A DNA stretch of 29,998 nucleotides from a virus, in the IMG/VR virus record IMGVR_UViG_3300025769_000559, positions 1 through 29,998 of that record. The stretch is one strand, 5' to 3'. Both the position numbers and the translations under genes were made by a program. This document shows, one piece after another, positions 21,917 to 27,456 of the stretch. The notes below the pieces were generated by a model. That model did no database searches. It saw only the letters and a program-made list of their open reading frames with translations, and was not told the DNA's origin. The first letter of the stretch is position 1. The number at the start of each line of letters is the position of its first letter.

Positions 21917-22087
21917 ATGGAGATATTAATTGCAGTAATCCTACTGACAATATTAGCACTGATGATAGCCTGGATAGCAACCGAGTATCAGATGATATGG
22001 AATTGGATCAAAACACAAATAAAAAACCTCGTCCAAAAATGCATCGCATTGTTACAGACTGTTGTTAACTGGTTACTACGTCTATGA
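21917..22087 (+). CDS. Small membrane protein of the lysis cassette
   Basis: The 56-residue product starts at ATG 21917, preceded by GGAG at 21905-21908. An upstream TTG in frame has no ribosome site and was not chosen. Residues 1-21 (MEILIAVILLTILALMIAWI) are a transmembrane segment. The rest is Trp-, Gln- and Lys-containing and amphipathic (QMIWNWIKTQIKNLVQK). The TGA overlaps the holin start (ATGA). It could be a second holin, antiholin or spanin-like piece; no motif decides. Confidence 0.6.
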   Translation: MEILIAVILLTILALMIAWIATEYQMIWNWIKTQIKNLVQKCIALLQTVVNWLLRL

Positions 22088-22476
22088 TTAGCGCAATACT
22101 TCCTCTAATCTCTACCGTTATTGATCGAGTCATTCCTGATAAGAATGGTGCAGAGAAGGCCAAACAAGAGATTGAAAAGACACTCATTGATAATGCTAAC
22201 CAACTTAATCTCGCACAAGTTGAAGTCAATAAAGTAGAAGCAGAACATCGCTCAGTCTTTGTTGCTGGCTGGCGACCTATGATTGGTTGGAGTTGTGCCA
22301 TTGGAATTTTTTGGCTATTTGTCGGACATCCACTTGTTGTCTATATAGATGGACTAGACGGTATAACAAGTCCTATCCCTACAATAAACCATGACATTTT
22401 ATTAGAGCTTACCTTTGCTATGTTAGGCATGGCTGGCCTACGCACATTTGAAAAACTGAAGGGCATTACTAAGTAG
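22084..22476 (+). CDS. Holin of the 3TM (Holin_3TMs) type
   Basis: The 130-residue product matches the 3TM holin family. It has a short helical N-terminus (MISAILPLISTVIDRVIPD), a charged coiled middle (AEKAKQEIEKTLIDNANQLN), then VFVAGWRPMIGWSCAIGIFW, the family's key 'F.AGWRP..GW' block leading into a transmembrane helix. A second helix lies near residues 103-118 (ILLELTFAMLGMAGLRTFEK). Holins open the inner membrane at a set time so the endolysin can reach the wall. It is directly followed by the endolysin with a 1-nt overlap. Confidence 0.8.
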   Translation: MISAILPLISTVIDRVIPDKNGAEKAKQEIEKTLIDNANQLNLAQVEVNKVEAEHRSVFVAGWRPMIGWSCAIGIFWLFVGHPLVVYIDGLDGITSPIPTINHDILLELTFAMLGMAGLRTFEKLKGITK

Positions 22477-22913
22477 TGTACTTAACAGACCACTTTAGCA
22501 AAGAAGAACTGTGCCATAGTAATACTGCCATCCGATTGGGTTTAAAAAATGAACCTAACCAGGTGCAACTAACTAATCTTTATAAACTCGCTGAAGGATT
22601 AGAGCATGTCAGGTCTAAGCTGGGTGGACTACCTATCATTATATCTAGTGGGTTTAGGTCAATGGACGTTAATCGTGCTGTTGGTTCGAAAGACACGAGC
22701 TTTCACACTTTCGGTCTGGCAGCAGATTTTATCTGTCCTCGTTATGGCAGCATTCATGATGTGTTTCATGCTGTGGTATCCAGCTCGATAGAATATGACC
22801 AGTTAATCCTTGAACATGATGCTTGGTGCCATGTCGGATTTGCTAAAGGTACAGACAAACCTAGACGACAATCACTCATTATAGATAAGCATGGCGTACG
22901 CGCACATAGTTGA
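22476..22913 (+). CDS. M15-family peptidoglycan peptidase (endolysin)
   Basis: The 145-residue product begins at GTG 22476, which overlaps the holin TAG. It matches Peptidase_M15_3: FSKEELCHS near the start, a helix with GLEHVRSKLGGLPIIISSGF, RSMDVNRAVGSKDTSFHTFG with zinc ligands H77 and D84 (H-x6-D), and a late EHDAWCHVGF with the third zinc ligand H119 and the likely catalytic Glu113. Such enzymes cut peptide bonds of the cell-wall stem peptide and act as phage endolysins. No signal peptide is present, so it depends on the holin. GTG start and coupling suggest holin and endolysin are made in step. Confidence 0.85.
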   Translation: MYLTDHFSKEELCHSNTAIRLGLKNEPNQVQLTNLYKLAEGLEHVRSKLGGLPIIISSGFRSMDVNRAVGSKDTSFHTFGLAADFICPRYGSIHDVFHAVVSSSIEYDQLILEHDAWCHVGFAKGTDKPRRQSLIIDKHGVRAHS

Positions 22914-22937
22914 CCAACAACAGATATAAGATATACT
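22910..22937 (+). promoter_or_regulatory. Sigma-70-type promoter upstream of phosphoesterase
   Basis: TTGACC (22910-22915, 5 of 6) and TATACT (22932-22937, 5 of 6) are separated by 16 nt, overlapping the end of the endolysin gene. Transcription would begin about 22944, 23 nt before the next start. It marks the change from lysis genes to the accessory group. Inferred from consensus. Confidence 0.55.
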
Positions 22938-22966
22938 TATAAGGTATTAACTTTGTAGAGAATCTT

Positions 22967-23674
22967 ATGACGAAATATAAATCTGTTTTAGTTATATCAG
23001 ATCTCCACATTCCCTATCATCACAAAGACGCATTCAAATTTCTCAAGGCACTTAAAGATAAATATAAGCCTGACCTCATAGTTAACATTGGCGATGAGTT
23101 AGATCAGCATGCTATTAGTATGCACGATTCTAATCCTGATCTGATGTCAGCCGGGGATGAATTAAAATCGTCTCGTGTATATGTAAAAGAGTTAGAAAAA
23201 ATTTTTCCTAAGATGTCCATCGTACACTCCAATCACTCCTCCTTAGTCTATAGACGTGCGTTGAAGTATGGATTACCCAAGGAATATTTACGTTCTTACA
23301 ATGAGTTTCTTGGTGTCGGCAAAGGTTGGCAATGGGTTGATGACCTACGCATTACCTTATCTGATAACTCAAGATGTTTCTTTACCCATGGTATGTCCGC
23401 CACGGTGCTACAAGTGGCAATGCAATACGGCATGAACACAGTTCAAGGCCATTACCATACCAAGTTTTCTATCGGGTACTATTCAAATCCAGACGCTTTA
23501 ATCTGGGGCATGCAAGTTGGTTGTCTTATCGATCAGAAATCCATGGCATTTGATTATGCTAAAAACTTTAAGACAAGATTTATTGTTGGTTGTGGTATGA
23601 TAATAGAAGGACAACCAAAGCTAATGCCGATGGTATTAAAGGACGGTGGAGATTGGATAGGAAAGATAGTTTAG
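22967..23674 (+). CDS. Calcineurin-like metallophosphoesterase
   Basis: The 235-residue product has the metal-binding order of this superfamily: D12-L-H14 (SDLHIPYH), G42-D43-E-L-D46, N89-H90 (SNHSS, where the usual form is GNH followed by Asp or Glu), H141 and G161-H162-Y-H164. It should bind two metal ions and split a phosphate ester or diester; the substrate is unknown. Phages carry such enzymes outside the virion cluster, possibly for nucleotide or RNA processing. It has its own promoter, and its 3' end overlaps the next gene. The altered third motif may change substrate choice but both ligands remain. Confidence 0.8.
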   Translation: MTKYKSVLVISDLHIPYHHKDAFKFLKALKDKYKPDLIVNIGDELDQHAISMHDSNPDLMSAGDELKSSRVYVKELEKIFPKMSIVHSNHSSLVYRRALKYGLPKEYLRSYNEFLGVGKGWQWVDDLRITLSDNSRCFFTHGMSATVLQVAMQYGMNTVQGHYHTKFSIGYYSNPDALIWGMQVGCLIDQKSMAFDYAKNFKTRFIVGCGMIIEGQPKLMPMVLKDGGDWIGKIV

Positions 23675-23886
23675 AAGCAGAATTTATTACTGAGGCTGAT
23701 GAGAATCAGGCAAAGTTACTTGATCAATTGGTTGGCAAAAAGATTTGGAACATTGAGTTTCTAGAATCCGACAGCCAATCAATGATCAAGATATTATTCT
23801 CGGATAAAGAAGATGATTTTCTTGTCATCCACTGCGAAGGCGCAGACTTATATTTAGTCGAACCTAAACCTAAAAATCTGCACTGA
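23653..23886 (+). CDS. Small hypothetical protein with TTG start
   Basis: The 77-residue product is acidic (FITEADENQAKLLDQLVGKK, IKILFSDKEDDFLVIHCEGA) and looks like a small alpha/beta protein. No ATG or GTG exists in frame. The chosen start is TTG at 23653, inside the phosphoesterase gene, with AGGA and GGAG just upstream. The frame stays open to a TTG at 23590, but that start has no ribosome site. TGATG overlap with the next gene. Function unknown; the TTG start suggests low, coupled expression. Confidence 0.55.
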   Translation: MDRKDSLEAEFITEADENQAKLLDQLVGKKIWNIEFLESDSQSMIKILFSDKEDDFLVIHCEGADLYLVEPKPKNLH

Positions 23887-24146
23887 TGCCCCTCGAATAT
23901 GTATTGATAGTTATGATGGGTGGCAACCCATTATATGTGGGTACATTCTTAAATTGTGAAGTTGCAAATGCCTATGCTGATAAAAATTTATTAGATGATA
24001 CTTACAGAATTTGCCTTCATCAAGATTTTATTAACCTTCCTCCCGACCATAAACACAAATATATCTTTTATGACTATCATAAGACAGAATTACAGGTTGG
24101 AATAGAAAAACGACCTCGTATAACGCTCTCTGTTGCACGATCTTAA
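23886..24146 (+). CDS. Small hypothetical protein at end of plus-strand operon
   Basis: The 86-residue product has a hydrophobic start (LEYVLIVMMGGNPLYVGTF) that is more likely a buried beta strand than a signal, then a helix (NCEVANAYADKNLLDD) and a basic tail. The pattern 'V-L-x-x-M-x-G...F..C..A..YA' recalls small phage proteins of unknown function. It is the last gene of the long plus-strand operon. No clear terminator follows, only a G-rich stretch (24144-24164). Confidence 0.6.
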   Translation: MPLEYVLIVMMGGNPLYVGTFLNCEVANAYADKNLLDDTYRICLHQDFINLPPDHKHKYIFYDYHKTELQVGIEKRPRITLSVARS

Positions 24147-24204
24147 GGTAGGTAAGGGGTAGGTATCAAAAAGTTTAAAGTCTTCACCACGAGGCTTAGA
24201 CGTG

Positions 24205-24414
24205 CTAGAACGGGGGTTCTCCATAAATGGCTGTAAATTCTTCATTTGATAGAGGTTTTATCTCTTCAACTCGACAATCCGGGCGTAATTTTAGAAAAGT
24301 TTCTACCGATTCTAAAGTTGCAAAGGATCTTAGGCTATCACCGAAGCCATCGAATACTACATATTTGTGATCAGGGTCTATCATTAGTCTTAACTCATGT
24401 TTATCTTGATTCAT
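24205..24414 (-). CDS. Small hypothetical protein divergent from pqqA
   Basis: The 69-residue acidic product (HKYVVFDGFGDSLRSFATLE, LSNEEFTAIYGEPPF) is not recognised. It is transcribed away from pqqA. A good minus-strand promoter ends so close to the ATG at 24414 that a transcript would be leaderless, or the real start is Met11 (ATG at 24384). It stands alone between the late operon and pqqA, so it is part of the accessory island. It could be a regulator or accessory protein of the island; nothing in the sequence proves this. Confidence 0.55.
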   Translation of the reverse strand: MNQDKHELRLMIDPDHKYVVFDGFGDSLRSFATLESVETFLKLRPDCRVEEIKPLSNEEFTAIYGEPPF

Positions 24415-24442
24415 CTTACACTTTATATAGTTAAACTACAAT
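24415..24442 (+). promoter_or_regulatory. Candidate promoter for pqqA
   Basis: CTTACA (24415-24420, 4 of 6) and TACAAT (24437-24442, 5 of 6) are 16 nt apart. The start would be near 24449, leaving a leader of about 23 nt with a GAAAGGG ribosome site. It overlaps the minus-strand promoter almost completely, so the two probably compete. Confidence 0.4.
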
Positions 24443-24450
24443 CTTGACAA
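24422..24450 (-). promoter_or_regulatory. Sigma-70-type promoter for the divergent small gene
   Basis: On the minus strand TTGTCA (24450-24445, 5 of 6) and TATAAA (24427-24422, 5 of 6) are exactly 17 nt apart. The start would fall at the first ATG of the 24205-24414 gene. Confidence 0.5.
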
Positions 24451-24471
24451 ACTAACTGAAAGGGAATAATC

Positions 24472-24543
24472 ATGTGGACAACTCCATCAGCTACTGAAAT
24501 GCGTTTTGGTTTCGAAGTAACAATGTATGTAATGAACAAATAA
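24472..24543 (+). CDS. pqqA: PqqA, precursor peptide of the cofactor PQQ
   Basis: This 23-residue gene is below the size of normal gene calls. The peptide reads MWTTPSATEMRFGFEV, then TMYVMNK. It has the same length and layout as bacterial PqqA (start MW-x-x-P, core G-[FL]-E-V-T-[ML]-Y). The two residues that become the PQQ skeleton, Glu15 and Tyr19, are present. In bacteria PqqE (radical SAM) with PqqD links them, and proteases plus PqqB and PqqC finish the cofactor. A GAAAGGG ribosome site lies 8 nt upstream, two stop codons end it, and a strong hairpin terminator follows at once. No other pqq gene is in the window, so it would feed the host's enzymes. It lies alone on the plus strand between minus-strand genes, like a cargo gene ('moron'). 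Confidence 0.9.
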   Translation: MWTTPSATEMRFGFEVTMYVMNK

Positions 24544-24544
24544 T

Positions 24545-24572
24545 AAAGGGCCTTTCGGCCCTCTATTGTTTT
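24545..24572 (+). terminator. Terminator after pqqA, usable from both strands
   Basis: AGGGCC (24547-24552) pairs with GGCCCT (24557-24562), loop TTTC, followed by CTATTGTTTT. On the minus strand the same hairpin is followed by TTATTATTTG, so it can also stop the early operon, whose last stop codon is at 24571-24573. Confidence 0.8.
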
Positions 24573-25293
24573 AAAAGAATCCAACCTTTTGAGAACGAGG
24601 TACTTTGAAATTATAAATATCTCGTATTGCATTGAAATAAATTTCTTTATCCCCTGTCTTGGGAATCATATGTGATTGACACTTTAATTTTTGTATCATT
24701 CTTTTATGATCATAATCAGCATGGTAAAACAACTCAATCATGCAGCTTAAAAAATTACTACTCTTATAGTTAGAATAATAATTACCAATCTCGTCCAGTC
24801 TTTTGGCATTCTCCAATGCACGCTCATAGTTTTTAATCTTAAAGTCACCAGATTTAAACATACGTCCATGCTCACCGGAGCGTTGTCGACTATCACTAAG
24901 TAACGAAATACAAACAGTATAGTTGAATCCAGTCTTCTGCATAAACTCTTTAAACTTTAAATATTCTGGATACCCAAGCTCACAAAACGATTGAAGCCTG
25001 TCATTGTTATTCCAGTTTGCTGTATTCTCATTAAGTCTACGCACCTCATCAAGATCTAAATTATTAATCTTCATAAAATACACTTCTTTTTTGAGAAATT
25101 TTGCAGCTTCAAATCGATGTTGGCCATCGATAATTTGCCTTTTCTTATTAACGATAATCGGAATAGGAATATATTTTTCCTTCATAGATTTCAATAGCCT
25201 TCTAAAATTAGCTTTGTTAATATTTCTATTACCGTTAATATAAGTAAACGCATTATAATCAGTAGTTACGTATACATCATTTGCTTTTTTCAT
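24571..25293 (-). CDS. ParB-like nuclease/partition-domain protein
   Basis: The 240-residue product (start chosen at ATG 25293, with AAGGA 6 nt upstream; the ATG at 25299 lies directly on that ribosome site) has the ParB/sulfiredoxin-fold signature. NKANFRRLLKSMKEKYIPIP leads to IIVNKKRQIIDGQHRFEAAK, the 'IxDGxHRxxA' nucleotide-binding block, and LNENTANWNNNDRLQSFCEL follows. Phage ParB-like proteins are often DNA-binding, CTP-binding or nickase-like and are made early. The rest is a Lys/Tyr-rich helical domain of unknown role. It is the last gene of the early minus-strand operon. Confidence 0.75.
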   Translation of the reverse strand: MKKANDVYVTTDYNAFTYINGNRNINKANFRRLLKSMKEKYIPIPIIVNKKRQIIDGQHRFEAAKFLKKEVYFMKINNLDLDEVRRLNENTANWNNNDRLQSFCELGYPEYLKFKEFMQKTGFNYTVCISLLSDSRQRSGEHGRMFKSGDFKIKNYERALENAKRLDEIGNYYSNYKSSNFLSCMIELFYHADYDHKRMIQKLKCQSHMIPKTGDKEIYFNAIRDIYNFKVPRSQKVGFF

Positions 25294-25314
25294 AATCATT
25301 CCTTGTAAAGTTAG

Positions 25315-25626
25315 TTAATTGTTTCTTGGTTTACGTAAACGTTCACCTTGTTTACGCATCTTACTTATTTGTTTGCGAAAATAATCTTTGTCTACGTGAA
25401 TTAACTGTAGACATAACTCCAAGACTTCATTATCTTCAAACAAAAATTGTGCTGCTTCTTTGCGTACCTCTTTCTTTACTTTCTTACCTAAGTATTCATC
25501 CAATGCATTTTGCAATACACCTAAAATTAAACGTCCACGCCAATCATCAAGTGAATAACTGTGTTGATGGGTGATACGTTCACATTCAGGATCCGCTAAA
25601 AAATCTAAACTTTTAAATGTGGCCAT
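25315..25626 (-). CDS. Small hypothetical early protein
   Basis: The 103-residue product is helical: SYSLDDWRGRLILGVLQNAL, a Lys-rich middle (EYLGKKVKKEVRKEAAQF), LELCLQLIHVDKDYFRKQIS and a strongly basic end. No family recognised; the basic tail may contact nucleic acid. Its ATG overlaps the stop of the upstream frame (TAATG). It lies between the annealing-protein extension and the ParB-like gene, so replication or recombination support is the likely setting. Confidence 0.6.
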   Translation of the reverse strand: MATFKSLDFLADPECERITHQHSYSLDDWRGRLILGVLQNALDEYLGKKVKKEVRKEAAQFLFEDNEVLELCLQLIHVDKDYFRKQISKMRKQGERLRKPRNN

Positions 25627-25811
25627 TAAAGTCCTTTCATTGCATCCATTAATGCATACTTGATTTTCACTTGCTTATCACCTGTCAGTTTTTGTACGAC
25701 TGAAAGATTGGCTGTTGCAAATGCCTCCATCTTTTTTAACTTTTCTTTTGCATCGAGTTTCTCTTCATCTATTTCCTTAATTTGTTTAAGGATCTCAATG
25801 TATCGATTCAT
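25626..25811 (-). CDS. C-terminal frame of the annealing protein (reached by -1 frameshift)
   Basis: Read alone from ATG 25811 this gives 61 helical, Lys/Glu-rich residues (MNRYIEILKQIKEIDEEKLD). However, no ribosome site precedes that ATG, and the frame stays open upstream through 20 more sensible residues (AYALNLPGKEALTFVDEHAL) to the frameshift site at 25871-25877. It is therefore best read as the C-terminal extension of the DUF1071-type protein. Independent translation from the ATG, or a sequencing error in the A-run that split one gene, are the other options. Confidence 0.6.
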   Translation of the reverse strand: MNRYIEILKQIKEIDEEKLDAKEKLKKMEAFATANLSVVQKLTGDKQVKIKYALMDAMKGL

Positions 25812-25847
25812 CAATGCATGTTCATCTACAAAAGTTAAAGCTTCTTT

Positions 25848-25891
25848 CCCTGGTAGATTCAGGGCATAGGCTTTTTTGCAGCCACCTCCCT
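25848..25891 (-). promoter_or_regulatory. -1 programmed ribosomal frameshift signal
   Basis: Minus-strand order: an SD-like AGGGAGGTGG (25891-25882); a slippery A AAA AAG (25877-25871) set exactly in the reading frame (GCA-AAA-AAG); 6 nt; a hairpin CCCTG/CAGGG (25864-25860 with 25852-25848, 7-nt loop) whose loop begins the zero-frame stop. The three parts and their spacings resemble the E. coli dnaX signal. Confidence 0.7.
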
Positions 25892-26347
25892 TACTTGCTT
25901 TGCCATGCTAGATTTATCTTTGTCTTCCTCTTCATTAATACCAAGATCACCCGCATACAAACTAATACCAAGGCCTGTTGTAGTGCTTATGCATTTAGCT
26001 AAACATCTTTTATAGGCTGTATTAATTTGATGTGAATTAGGATTAGTAATGGCTTTATTACCTCCCGCAATGACAGGCATAATCTCAGATTGACTTGTGC
26101 CTAATGTATGCAATGTAACTTGCACCATCATCGTGCCATCAGGGTAAAACTTTTCTTTATCTAAATCATAAGTAAAGGTAGCATTTGGATCATGTGTTTT
26201 TAATAAATCCAATGCATTTGCCCATGAAATATAGTCAAGTTCTGCACCGAAGCTTGATTTTTTCTTTTCAACTAATCCTAATTTATGTACATCAATTGCT
26301 CTTAACTCTTTATAAGCCTCAGCAATCACCGAAGTTTTCGTTGTCAT
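25859..26347 (-). CDS. Single-strand annealing protein (DUF1071-type), zero-frame product
   Basis: From ATG 26347 (GGAG 6 nt upstream) the product is 162 residues; an upstream TTG and GTG lack proper spacing. Key blocks are ELDYISWANALDLLKTHDPN (residues about 36-55), VQVTLHTLG (75-83), MPVIAGGNKAITNPNSHQIN (90-109) and AYKRCLAKCISTTTGLG with LYAGDL (111-135). This is the pattern of DUF1071 annealing proteins (Rad52/Red-beta-like role), which pair complementary single strands, usually with a partner exonuclease. Here the YqaJ-type exonuclease is two genes upstream. The gene ends with PMP after a frameshift site; frameshifting gives a 240-residue form. It overlaps the previous small gene by 29 nt. 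Confidence 0.75.
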   Translation of the reverse strand: MTTKTSVIAEAYKELRAIDVHKLGLVEKKKSSFGAELDYISWANALDLLKTHDPNATFTYDLDKEKFYPDGTMMVQVTLHTLGTSQSEIMPVIAGGNKAITNPNSHQINTAYKRCLAKCISTTTGLGISLYAGDLGINEEEDKDKSSMAKQVREVAAKKPMP

Positions 26348-26495
26348 CACATTCTCCAAAATAAAGTTTAATAATTTCTTGTCTTTTTGTAGTGTCTTTA
26401 ACGTTGCGATAAAGCACTTGCAAAAACGTATTTGTATCTTCTTGTTTCATACTGTGATCGTATTGATCACCCCCTAAGTTATTGATATCACTCAT
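26319..26495 (-). CDS. Small acidic protein between exonuclease and annealing protein
   Basis: The 58-residue product (MSDINNLGGDQYDHSMKQED, QVLYRNVKDTTKRQEIIKLY) starts at ATG 26495, which has GGGAG 8-9 nt upstream and overlaps the exonuclease stop (ATGAGTGA). A longer upstream frame has no ribosome site. It ends inside the annealing-protein gene. Acidic small proteins next to exonuclease/annealing pairs are sometimes partners or inhibitors of host nucleases, but no motif shows this here. Confidence 0.65.
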   Translation of the reverse strand: MSDINNLGGDQYDHSMKQEDTNTFLQVLYRNVKDTTKRQEIIKLYFGECDDNENFGDC

Positions 26496-27456
26496 TAATA
26501 TTCTCCCTATCTTTAATTTTAAGTTTTGATTGTCGAATGACATACCCATCTTTAGCCGGCAATGTCCTTGCGGGTTGCGGCTTAAATTGTCGAACAGGCC
26601 AATCAATTCCATAACGCCCCGCTACGGCATATTGATTGTCACGCATTTCATCCATGATTTTTGTCTGATGATTATCAATTTCCTTTTCTCGCTCAGTAAT
26701 TTCATCACGGAGTGTAACAATTCTTTCAGCAAGCTCTTCACAATGAGGCAATTCAATTTTAGTTTTATCTGCTTCATTAAATACTCGTGCAGCTTCATCC
26801 GGGGATTGACTCTCGTAAAAATCAATTTCCTCATTCGTTAGATACTTATCAATTCTTTTTTGAAAATCCATAATAGCGTCATGCAATTGAGATAAGACTT
26901 CATCATCCCTTTTGTATACAAAAAGTCTCAGCGTGGTGCCTTTATATAGCACGCACAATACACCTACTTCAGCATGACAAATATCCATCTGCATCTGTAA
27001 TTGTAATACCCCACGATAAAGCGGCAATGTATCGGCTGTCTCGACATCATGGGCGGTCACTTTAGATTCTAAAATAATCGTACCCTCAAGTTTAATGGAA
27101 TCTGCATTAACACAAATGATCCCCTTTTCTATATCAGTCATGATCTCTTTGCCATCGCCCTCAATTGTGCCATCCAGTGAGCATGCAATGGGTAAGGTGT
27201 CATGATGATACGCCTTTTCATGTGTTGTTTTTGGATTGCCTAGGCCTAACCTGGCACATGCTTCATTTAATATGATTGGTTCTAAAGTATTGCCCCAATT
27301 CATAGGTTCTGAACTTATTTGAGGTGGTTCGATACCATGATTGGCATCCATGATCATTTTTAATAATTCATTACGCGATTGAAAGCGCGAACACCCCATC
27401 AATACAGGCATCTGAGATGCACTCAACTCTTTGTTACTTGTGACTTTTCCTACCAT
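26488..27456 (-). CDS. YqaJ-type exonuclease (lambda exo-like)
   Basis: The 322-residue product has the PD-(D/E)XK fold of YqaJ/lambda exonuclease: an early SASQMPVLMGCSRFQSRNEL, W54-G55...E59 (MNWGNTLEPI), the catalytic Asp95 in ACSLDGTI, Glu130-x-Lys132 in IILESKV, and the helix GVLQLQMQMDICHAEVGVLC with Gln152. A charged coiled segment (residues 235-270) and an unusual Pro-rich tail follow. It would resect one DNA strand from double-strand ends so the annealing protein can pair the other. GGGAG lies 9 nt before the start. Confidence 0.85.
   Translation of the reverse strand: MVGKVTSNKELSASQMPVLMGCSRFQSRNELLKMIMDANHGIEPPQISSEPMNWGNTLEPIILNEACARLGLGNPKTTHEKAYHHDTLPIACSLDGTIEGDGKEIMTDIEKGIICVNADSIKLEGTIILESKVTAHDVETADTLPLYRGVLQLQMQMDICHAEVGVLCVLYKGTTLRLFVYKRDDEVLSQLHDAIMDFQKRIDKYLTNEEIDFYESQSPDEAARVFNEADKTKIELPHCEELAERIVTLRDEITEREKEIDNHQTKIMDEMRDNQYAVAGRYGIDWPVRQFKPQPARTLPAKDGYVIRQSKLKIKDRENINE

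What the first reader, a model, noticed from the sequence alone, without database searches (positions are those of the whole stretch)
24472..24543. A phage-borne pqqA gene: the PQQ precursor peptide as cargo
Seen: a 23-residue frame with GFEVTMY core, Glu15 and Tyr19 in the standard places, ribosome site, own terminator and candidate promoter. Known: PqqA is the ribosomal precursor from which PqqE, PqqD, protease, PqqB and PqqC make PQQ, the cofactor of methanol dehydrogenases. Inference: the phage raises precursor supply to keep methanol or alcohol oxidation, and so energy supply, running during infection. A peptide gene this short is skipped by most gene finders, so such genes may be missed in other phages. 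It may already have been noted in methylotroph phages; I cannot check.
Basis: partly seen in the sequence, partly recalled or inferred. Interest (0 to 1): 0.9.

Follow-up and report, generated by a model that had tools for sequence, protein, structure and literature searches.

The report
Phage gene for PQQ precursor peptide
This virus of methanol-eating bacteria carries a genuine 23-residue PqqA gene, the disposable starting peptide from which the host makes its methanol-oxidation cofactor; one such viral gene had been reported before, but the same tiny gene sits unrecognised in every cultured virus of these bacteria that I could examine and in well over a hundred uncultured viral sequences.

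Summary
Window 24472-24543 (+) encodes MWTTPSATEMRFGFEVTMYVMNK, a PqqA by Pfam (41.3 bits, cut-off 21.1) and NCBIfam (38.5, cut-off 20), with Glu15 and Tyr19, a ribosome site and a strong bidirectional terminator. The window is a MEP301-like methylophage.

The gene is unannotated, or hidden under an ORF called on the opposite strand, in all nine cultured methylophage records found, which belong to at least four dissimilar phage groups. It occurs in more than 120 IMG/VR contigs. Glu15 and Tyr19 were kept in 121 of 121 loci chosen without reference to them. pN/pS is about 0.11. It lies downstream of the phosphoesterase gene, always on the same strand, in 37 of 42 relatives with enough sequence; pelagiphages sharing that gene show no match. 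Of 47 viral records with pqqA, none has pqqC or a convincing pqqE and one has an alcohol dehydrogenase. Host genomes carry 1-12 pqqA but a single pqqC.

Best reading: an auxiliary gene that supplies the single-use substrate of host PQQ synthesis, so methanol oxidation continues during infection. The idea is not new: pqqA was reported in a T4-like Baikal virus in 2020. The breadth and the systematic annotation miss appear new. Function is untested.

The parts
24472..24543 (+). pqqA: 23-aa pyrroloquinoline quinone precursor peptide, MWTTPSATEMRFGFEVTMYVMNK
   Evidence: Pfam PF08042 and NCBIfam TIGR02107 above curated cut-offs; 95.7% identical to unannotated ORFs in P19250A and Venkman
24460..24465 (+). 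ribosome-binding site AAGGGA, 6 nt before the ATG
   Evidence: sequence; AAGGAGA-type sites enriched upstream of viral pqqA
24415..24442 (+). candidate promoter CTTACA-16-TACAAT (weak; 9 of 12)
   Evidence: as a group, viral pqqA leaders hold exact TATAAT in 47 of 150 against 23 in shuffles, mostly 36-60 nt before ATG
24542..24567 (.). bidirectional intrinsic terminator: can end the + strand pqqA transcript and the convergent - strand early transcript
   Evidence: terminator-like stems follow 25 of 54 pqqA of relatives against 0.6 expected
22967..23674 (+). calcineurin-like phosphoesterase, conserved upstream neighbour on the same strand
   Evidence: phrog_221, PF00149; used to select relatives without reference to pqqA
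24571..25299 (-). ParB-like protein, convergent neighbour of the early region
   Evidence: phrog_12305

Best explanation
The gene is a functional phage-borne pqqA. During infection the phage template makes extra PqqA. Host PqqD presents it to host PqqE, which cross-links Glu15 to Tyr19; host protease, PqqB and PqqC finish PQQ. PQQ loads the periplasmic methanol dehydrogenases, so electron flow and ATP continue while the phage takes over the cell. Shown by sequence: identity as PqqA, conservation under purifying selection, presence in unrelated methylophages, absence of the other pqq genes tested on the viral records. Inferred: expression, processing, precursor limitation in infected cells, benefit to the phage.
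For: Family match. Glu15 and Tyr19 in 121/121 viral loci selected only by the N-terminal half; no E15 or Y19 change in the phosphoesterase-selected set, although the filter allowed D, F, W and H. pN/pS 0.11 in 36 distinct viral genes. 75 of 172 distinct viral coding sequences give a peptide identical to a host PqqA in the sample, only 4 with identical DNA. Same gene in different settings in P19250A/Venkman, MEP301, MEP401/402 and T4-like Melnitz. Pelagiphages with 49-70% identical phosphoesterase have no PqqA match at E 10. In 47 viral records with pqqA: no PqqC, no PqqE over cut-off, while 18 of 20 hosts give PqqC. Hosts hold 1-12 pqqA, one pqqC and PQQ alcohol dehydrogenases; solo amplification of pqqA in Methylophilaceae is published (PMC4109929). 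Added PqqA is converted to PQQ by Gluconobacter extract at 70-80% (cited in PMC9851590).
Against: No transcript, protein or PQQ measurement. The promoter of this copy is weak. One near-complete MEP301-like record (34,431 bases) and 5 of 42 phosphoesterase-selected loci lack it, so it is not essential. Hosts already have up to 12 copies, so a shortage of precursor is not shown.
Confidence: 0.78

Rival explanations
1. Phage PqqA acts as a decoy or brake: made in excess, it ties up PqqD/PqqE or feeds back on PQQ synthesis to redirect host metabolism.
For: The phage brings the substrate without the enzymes, so stoichiometry would be disturbed.
Against: A decoy would be freer to lose Glu15 or Tyr19, yet none of the viral copies has; host genomes themselves amplify pqqA alone.
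Confidence: 0.08
2. Passenger gene: small host fragments with their own terminator are picked up repeatedly and persist without benefit to the phage.
For: The gene is tiny, hosts carry many copies, and many host and viral copies come with a terminator.
Against: pN/pS about 0.11 in viral copies, mostly not identical in DNA to sampled host genes, conserved strand and place in relatives, and no match in pelagiphages with related neighbouring genes.
Confidence: 0.09
3. The peptide serves a PQQ enzyme carried by the phage itself rather than host enzymes.
For: One of 47 records (72 kb) also encodes a PQQ alcohol dehydrogenase, as do Baikal viruses.
Against: 46 of 47 records have none, although many are fragments.
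Confidence: 0.04

Closest known systems
pqqA in T4-like Methylophilaceae virus VP_266, Lake Baikal (PMC7678222)
   Same: phage-borne PqqA predicted to support methanol oxidation
   Different: there a large T4-like population that also encodes methanol dehydrogenase; here a small MEP301-like phage with pqqA and no dehydrogenase seen, and the gene is found across several phage lineages
Host PqqA of Methylophilaceae (PF08042, TIGR02107)
   Same: same length and core, E15/Y19; many viral peptides identical to host peptides
   Different: located among phage genes without pqqBCDE; viral leaders more often hold TATAAT than host leaders
Other phage auxiliary metabolic genes (for example cyanophage psbA)
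   Same: host-derived gene thought to replace a quickly consumed component of energy metabolism (own knowledge)
   Different: supplies a ribosomal precursor of a small-molecule cofactor, not an enzyme or reaction-centre protein

Membership tests
PqqA (PF08042 / TIGR02107) | profile score above curated cut-off | tested here: met
   41.3 against 21.1 bits and 38.5 against 20 bits
PqqA (PF08042 / TIGR02107) | Glu and Tyr in E-x3-Y, the atoms of PQQ | tested here: met
   E15, Y19; kept in 121/121 viral loci not selected for them
PqqA (PF08042 / TIGR02107) | short peptide of the same length as the host's PqqA | tested here: met
   23 aa, as in the sampled Methylophilaceae hosts
PqqA (PF08042 / TIGR02107) | cross-linked by PqqE with PqqD and converted to PQQ | not testable with these tools
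   needs biochemistry
Phage auxiliary metabolic gene | metabolic gene with a host homologue, located in a genuine phage genome | tested here: met
   between phosphoesterase/lysis genes and ParB-like/recombination genes; MEP301-like
Phage auxiliary metabolic gene | maintained by selection in phages | tested here: met
   pN/pS 0.11 among 36 distinct viral genes
Phage auxiliary metabolic gene | expressed and beneficial during infection | not testable with these tools
   no infection transcriptome or mutant at hand

The most novel reading that the evidence does not exclude
pqqA is a near-universal, convergently acquired and systematically overlooked signature gene of phages of PQQ-making methylotrophs: such phages as a rule supply the single-use precursor peptide of the host's key cofactor, and the gene predicts the host's metabolism.
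Probability: 0.6. Interest if true: 0.68.

Novelty: new member of a known kind. Interest (0 to 1): 0.58.

Why it matters
Methylotrophs such as OM43 are abundant coastal methanol consumers, and their phages may keep methanol oxidation running during infection. A 72-base gene missed in the annotation of all nine cultured methylophage records found is directly testable with phage-host pairs already in culture (Venkman and Melnitz on H5P1, MEP301 on FZCC2181, MEP401/402 on FZCC0133). It also suggests a class of auxiliary gene, single-use peptide precursors, that standard pipelines drop because of length, and it could serve as a marker for assigning methylotroph hosts to viral contigs.

Tried and rejected
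The TTGACA at 24444 as the pqqA promoter: its partner hexamer overlaps the ATG. Acinetobacter phage MD-2021a hits: a 144-kb contig with ppk and a pqqA-B-C-D-E run, which looks like bacterial chromosome deposited as phage, so not counted. No Rfam match at 22000-27000. PHROGs holds no family that matches this PqqA. MEP431-434, Venkman EXVC038S and HIM624-A are in the taxonomy but were not seen in any search, so they are neither counted for nor against.

Full report
What is there. Window 24472-24543 on the + strand encodes MWTTPSATEMRFGFEVTMYVMNK. Both curated models of the family recognise it far above their cut-offs, and it is the only hit in the whole record. AAGGGA stands 6 nt before the ATG. 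A GC-rich hairpin follows the stop; it folds at -16.9 kcal/mol (z -5.1) and is flanked by T-rich tails on both strands, so it can end both the pqqA transcript and the opposing early transcript. The gene is a + strand island between two - strand genes, an unknown 69-aa ORF (24205-24414) and a ParB-like protein (24571-25299), downstream of holin, M15 endolysin and phosphoesterase genes.

Whose phage. The record is a virus record of IMG/VR. Its nearest named relative is Methylophilales phage MEP301 (DNA; capsid 86% identical). The other named DNA matches near the gene are methylophages and, over the phosphoesterase gene, pelagiphages.

The gene in other phages. A tblastn of the peptide against 50,697 phage records finds nine cultured methylophage records (P19250A, Venkman, MEP301, MEP401, MEP402 and four Melnitz), one uncultured spring phage, and an Acinetobacter contig that is probably bacterial. 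These belong to at least four groups: P19250A/Venkman, MEP301, the Zobellviridae MEP401/402 and the T4-like Melnitz (taxonomy lines). In P19250A, Venkman, MEP301, MEP401 and MEP402 nothing is annotated at the spot; in Melnitz and the spring phage an ORF is annotated on the opposite strand. The full texts of the MEP301 and MEP401/402 papers do not contain pqq, nor does the Venkman paper; the Melnitz paper names PQQ only as a medium supplement.

Depth in uncultured viruses. All 120 matches of the first are short frames of the PqqA type. In the set chosen by the N-terminal half only, the unconstrained C-terminal half keeps Glu15 and Tyr19 in 121 of 121. In a third set chosen only by the neighbouring phosphoesterase, 56 of 80 loci show pqqA; of those with at least 4.5 kb downstream, 37 of 42 by my count, always on the phosphoesterase strand. 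In 36 distinct genes of that set third positions vary most and pN/pS is about 0.11. Terminator-like stems follow 25 of 54 copies against 0.6 expected. Exact TATAAT occurs in 47 of 150 distinct viral leaders against 23 in shuffles, mostly 36-60 nt before the ATG, and in only 2 of 132 host leaders; this suggests phage-type promoters for the group, though the copy in this window has no strong one. Of five capsid-selected records longer than 33 kb, four have pqqA.

Control phages. Pelagiphages whose phosphoesterase is 49-70% identical gave no PqqA match even at E 10. The gene therefore follows the host's metabolism rather than the phage lineage. SAR11, their host, is not known to make PQQ (own knowledge).

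Only the precursor is carried. All 47 larger viral records tested carry pqqA; none has PqqC and none has PqqE above cut-off. The PqqC model works in hosts, 18 of 20 genomes. One 72-kb record carries a PQQ alcohol dehydrogenase. Many records are fragments, so absence in a given virus is not proven.

Hosts. Twenty genomes, chosen because they hold pqqA and nearly all Methylophilaceae by title, carry 1-12 pqqA each but one pqqC, and all have matches to the quinoprotein alcohol dehydrogenase family, 17 over the cut-off. The literature notes the same: 3-12 pqqA and a single set of the other genes (PMC4109929). Of 172 distinct viral coding sequences, 75 give a peptide identical to a sampled host PqqA, but only 4 have the same DNA: the peptide is held fixed while synonymous sites drift.

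Mechanism. PqqA is the substrate, destroyed in giving one PQQ; the enzymes are reused (established knowledge of the pathway). A phage that stops host transcription would be expected to run short of the substrate first. Supplying that peptide costs 72 bases. This explains why the peptide and not the enzymes is carried, why the two PQQ-forming residues never change, why the gene follows methylotroph hosts, and why hosts themselves multiply only pqqA. Support for substrate supply mattering comes from a cited cell-free experiment in which added PqqA was turned into PQQ at 70-80% (PMC9851590). Expression, cross-linking, PQQ output and fitness effect are inferred, not shown.

Novelty. pqqA in a methylophage was published in 2020 for a T4-like Baikal virus (PMC7678222), with the same functional proposal. 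This window is therefore a new member of a known kind. What I did not find in the held literature is that the gene is present across unrelated methylophages, including every cultured one found here, and had been overlooked.

Noticed in passing
L122-L125, L127, L128: pqqA is missing from the annotation, or replaced by an ORF on the opposite strand, in public records of P19250A, Venkman, MEP301, MEP402, Melnitz and a Manatee Spring phage.
   Followed up: yes
L126 (CAKLQF020000010.1): A 144-kb contig named Acinetobacter phage MD-2021a carries ppk and a pqqA-B-C-D-E run and looks like bacterial chromosome.
   Followed up: partly
L052 / L463 (IMGVR_UViG_3300025120_009955): A 72-kb viral record encodes a PQQ alcohol dehydrogenase about 6 kb from pqqA, resembling the Baikal T4-like viruses.
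   Followed up: partly
L430 (IMGVR_UViG_3300028027_000073): A 52-kb viral record with two pqqA copies about 39 kb apart.
   Followed up: no
L035 (IMGVR_UViG_3300023174_000036): A 356-kb viral record with pqqA; either a very large methylophage or a misfiled bacterial contig.
   Followed up: no
L194, L197: Marine Nitrosomonadales/OM43-type genomes carry two pqqA in tandem about 200 bases apart.
   Followed up: no
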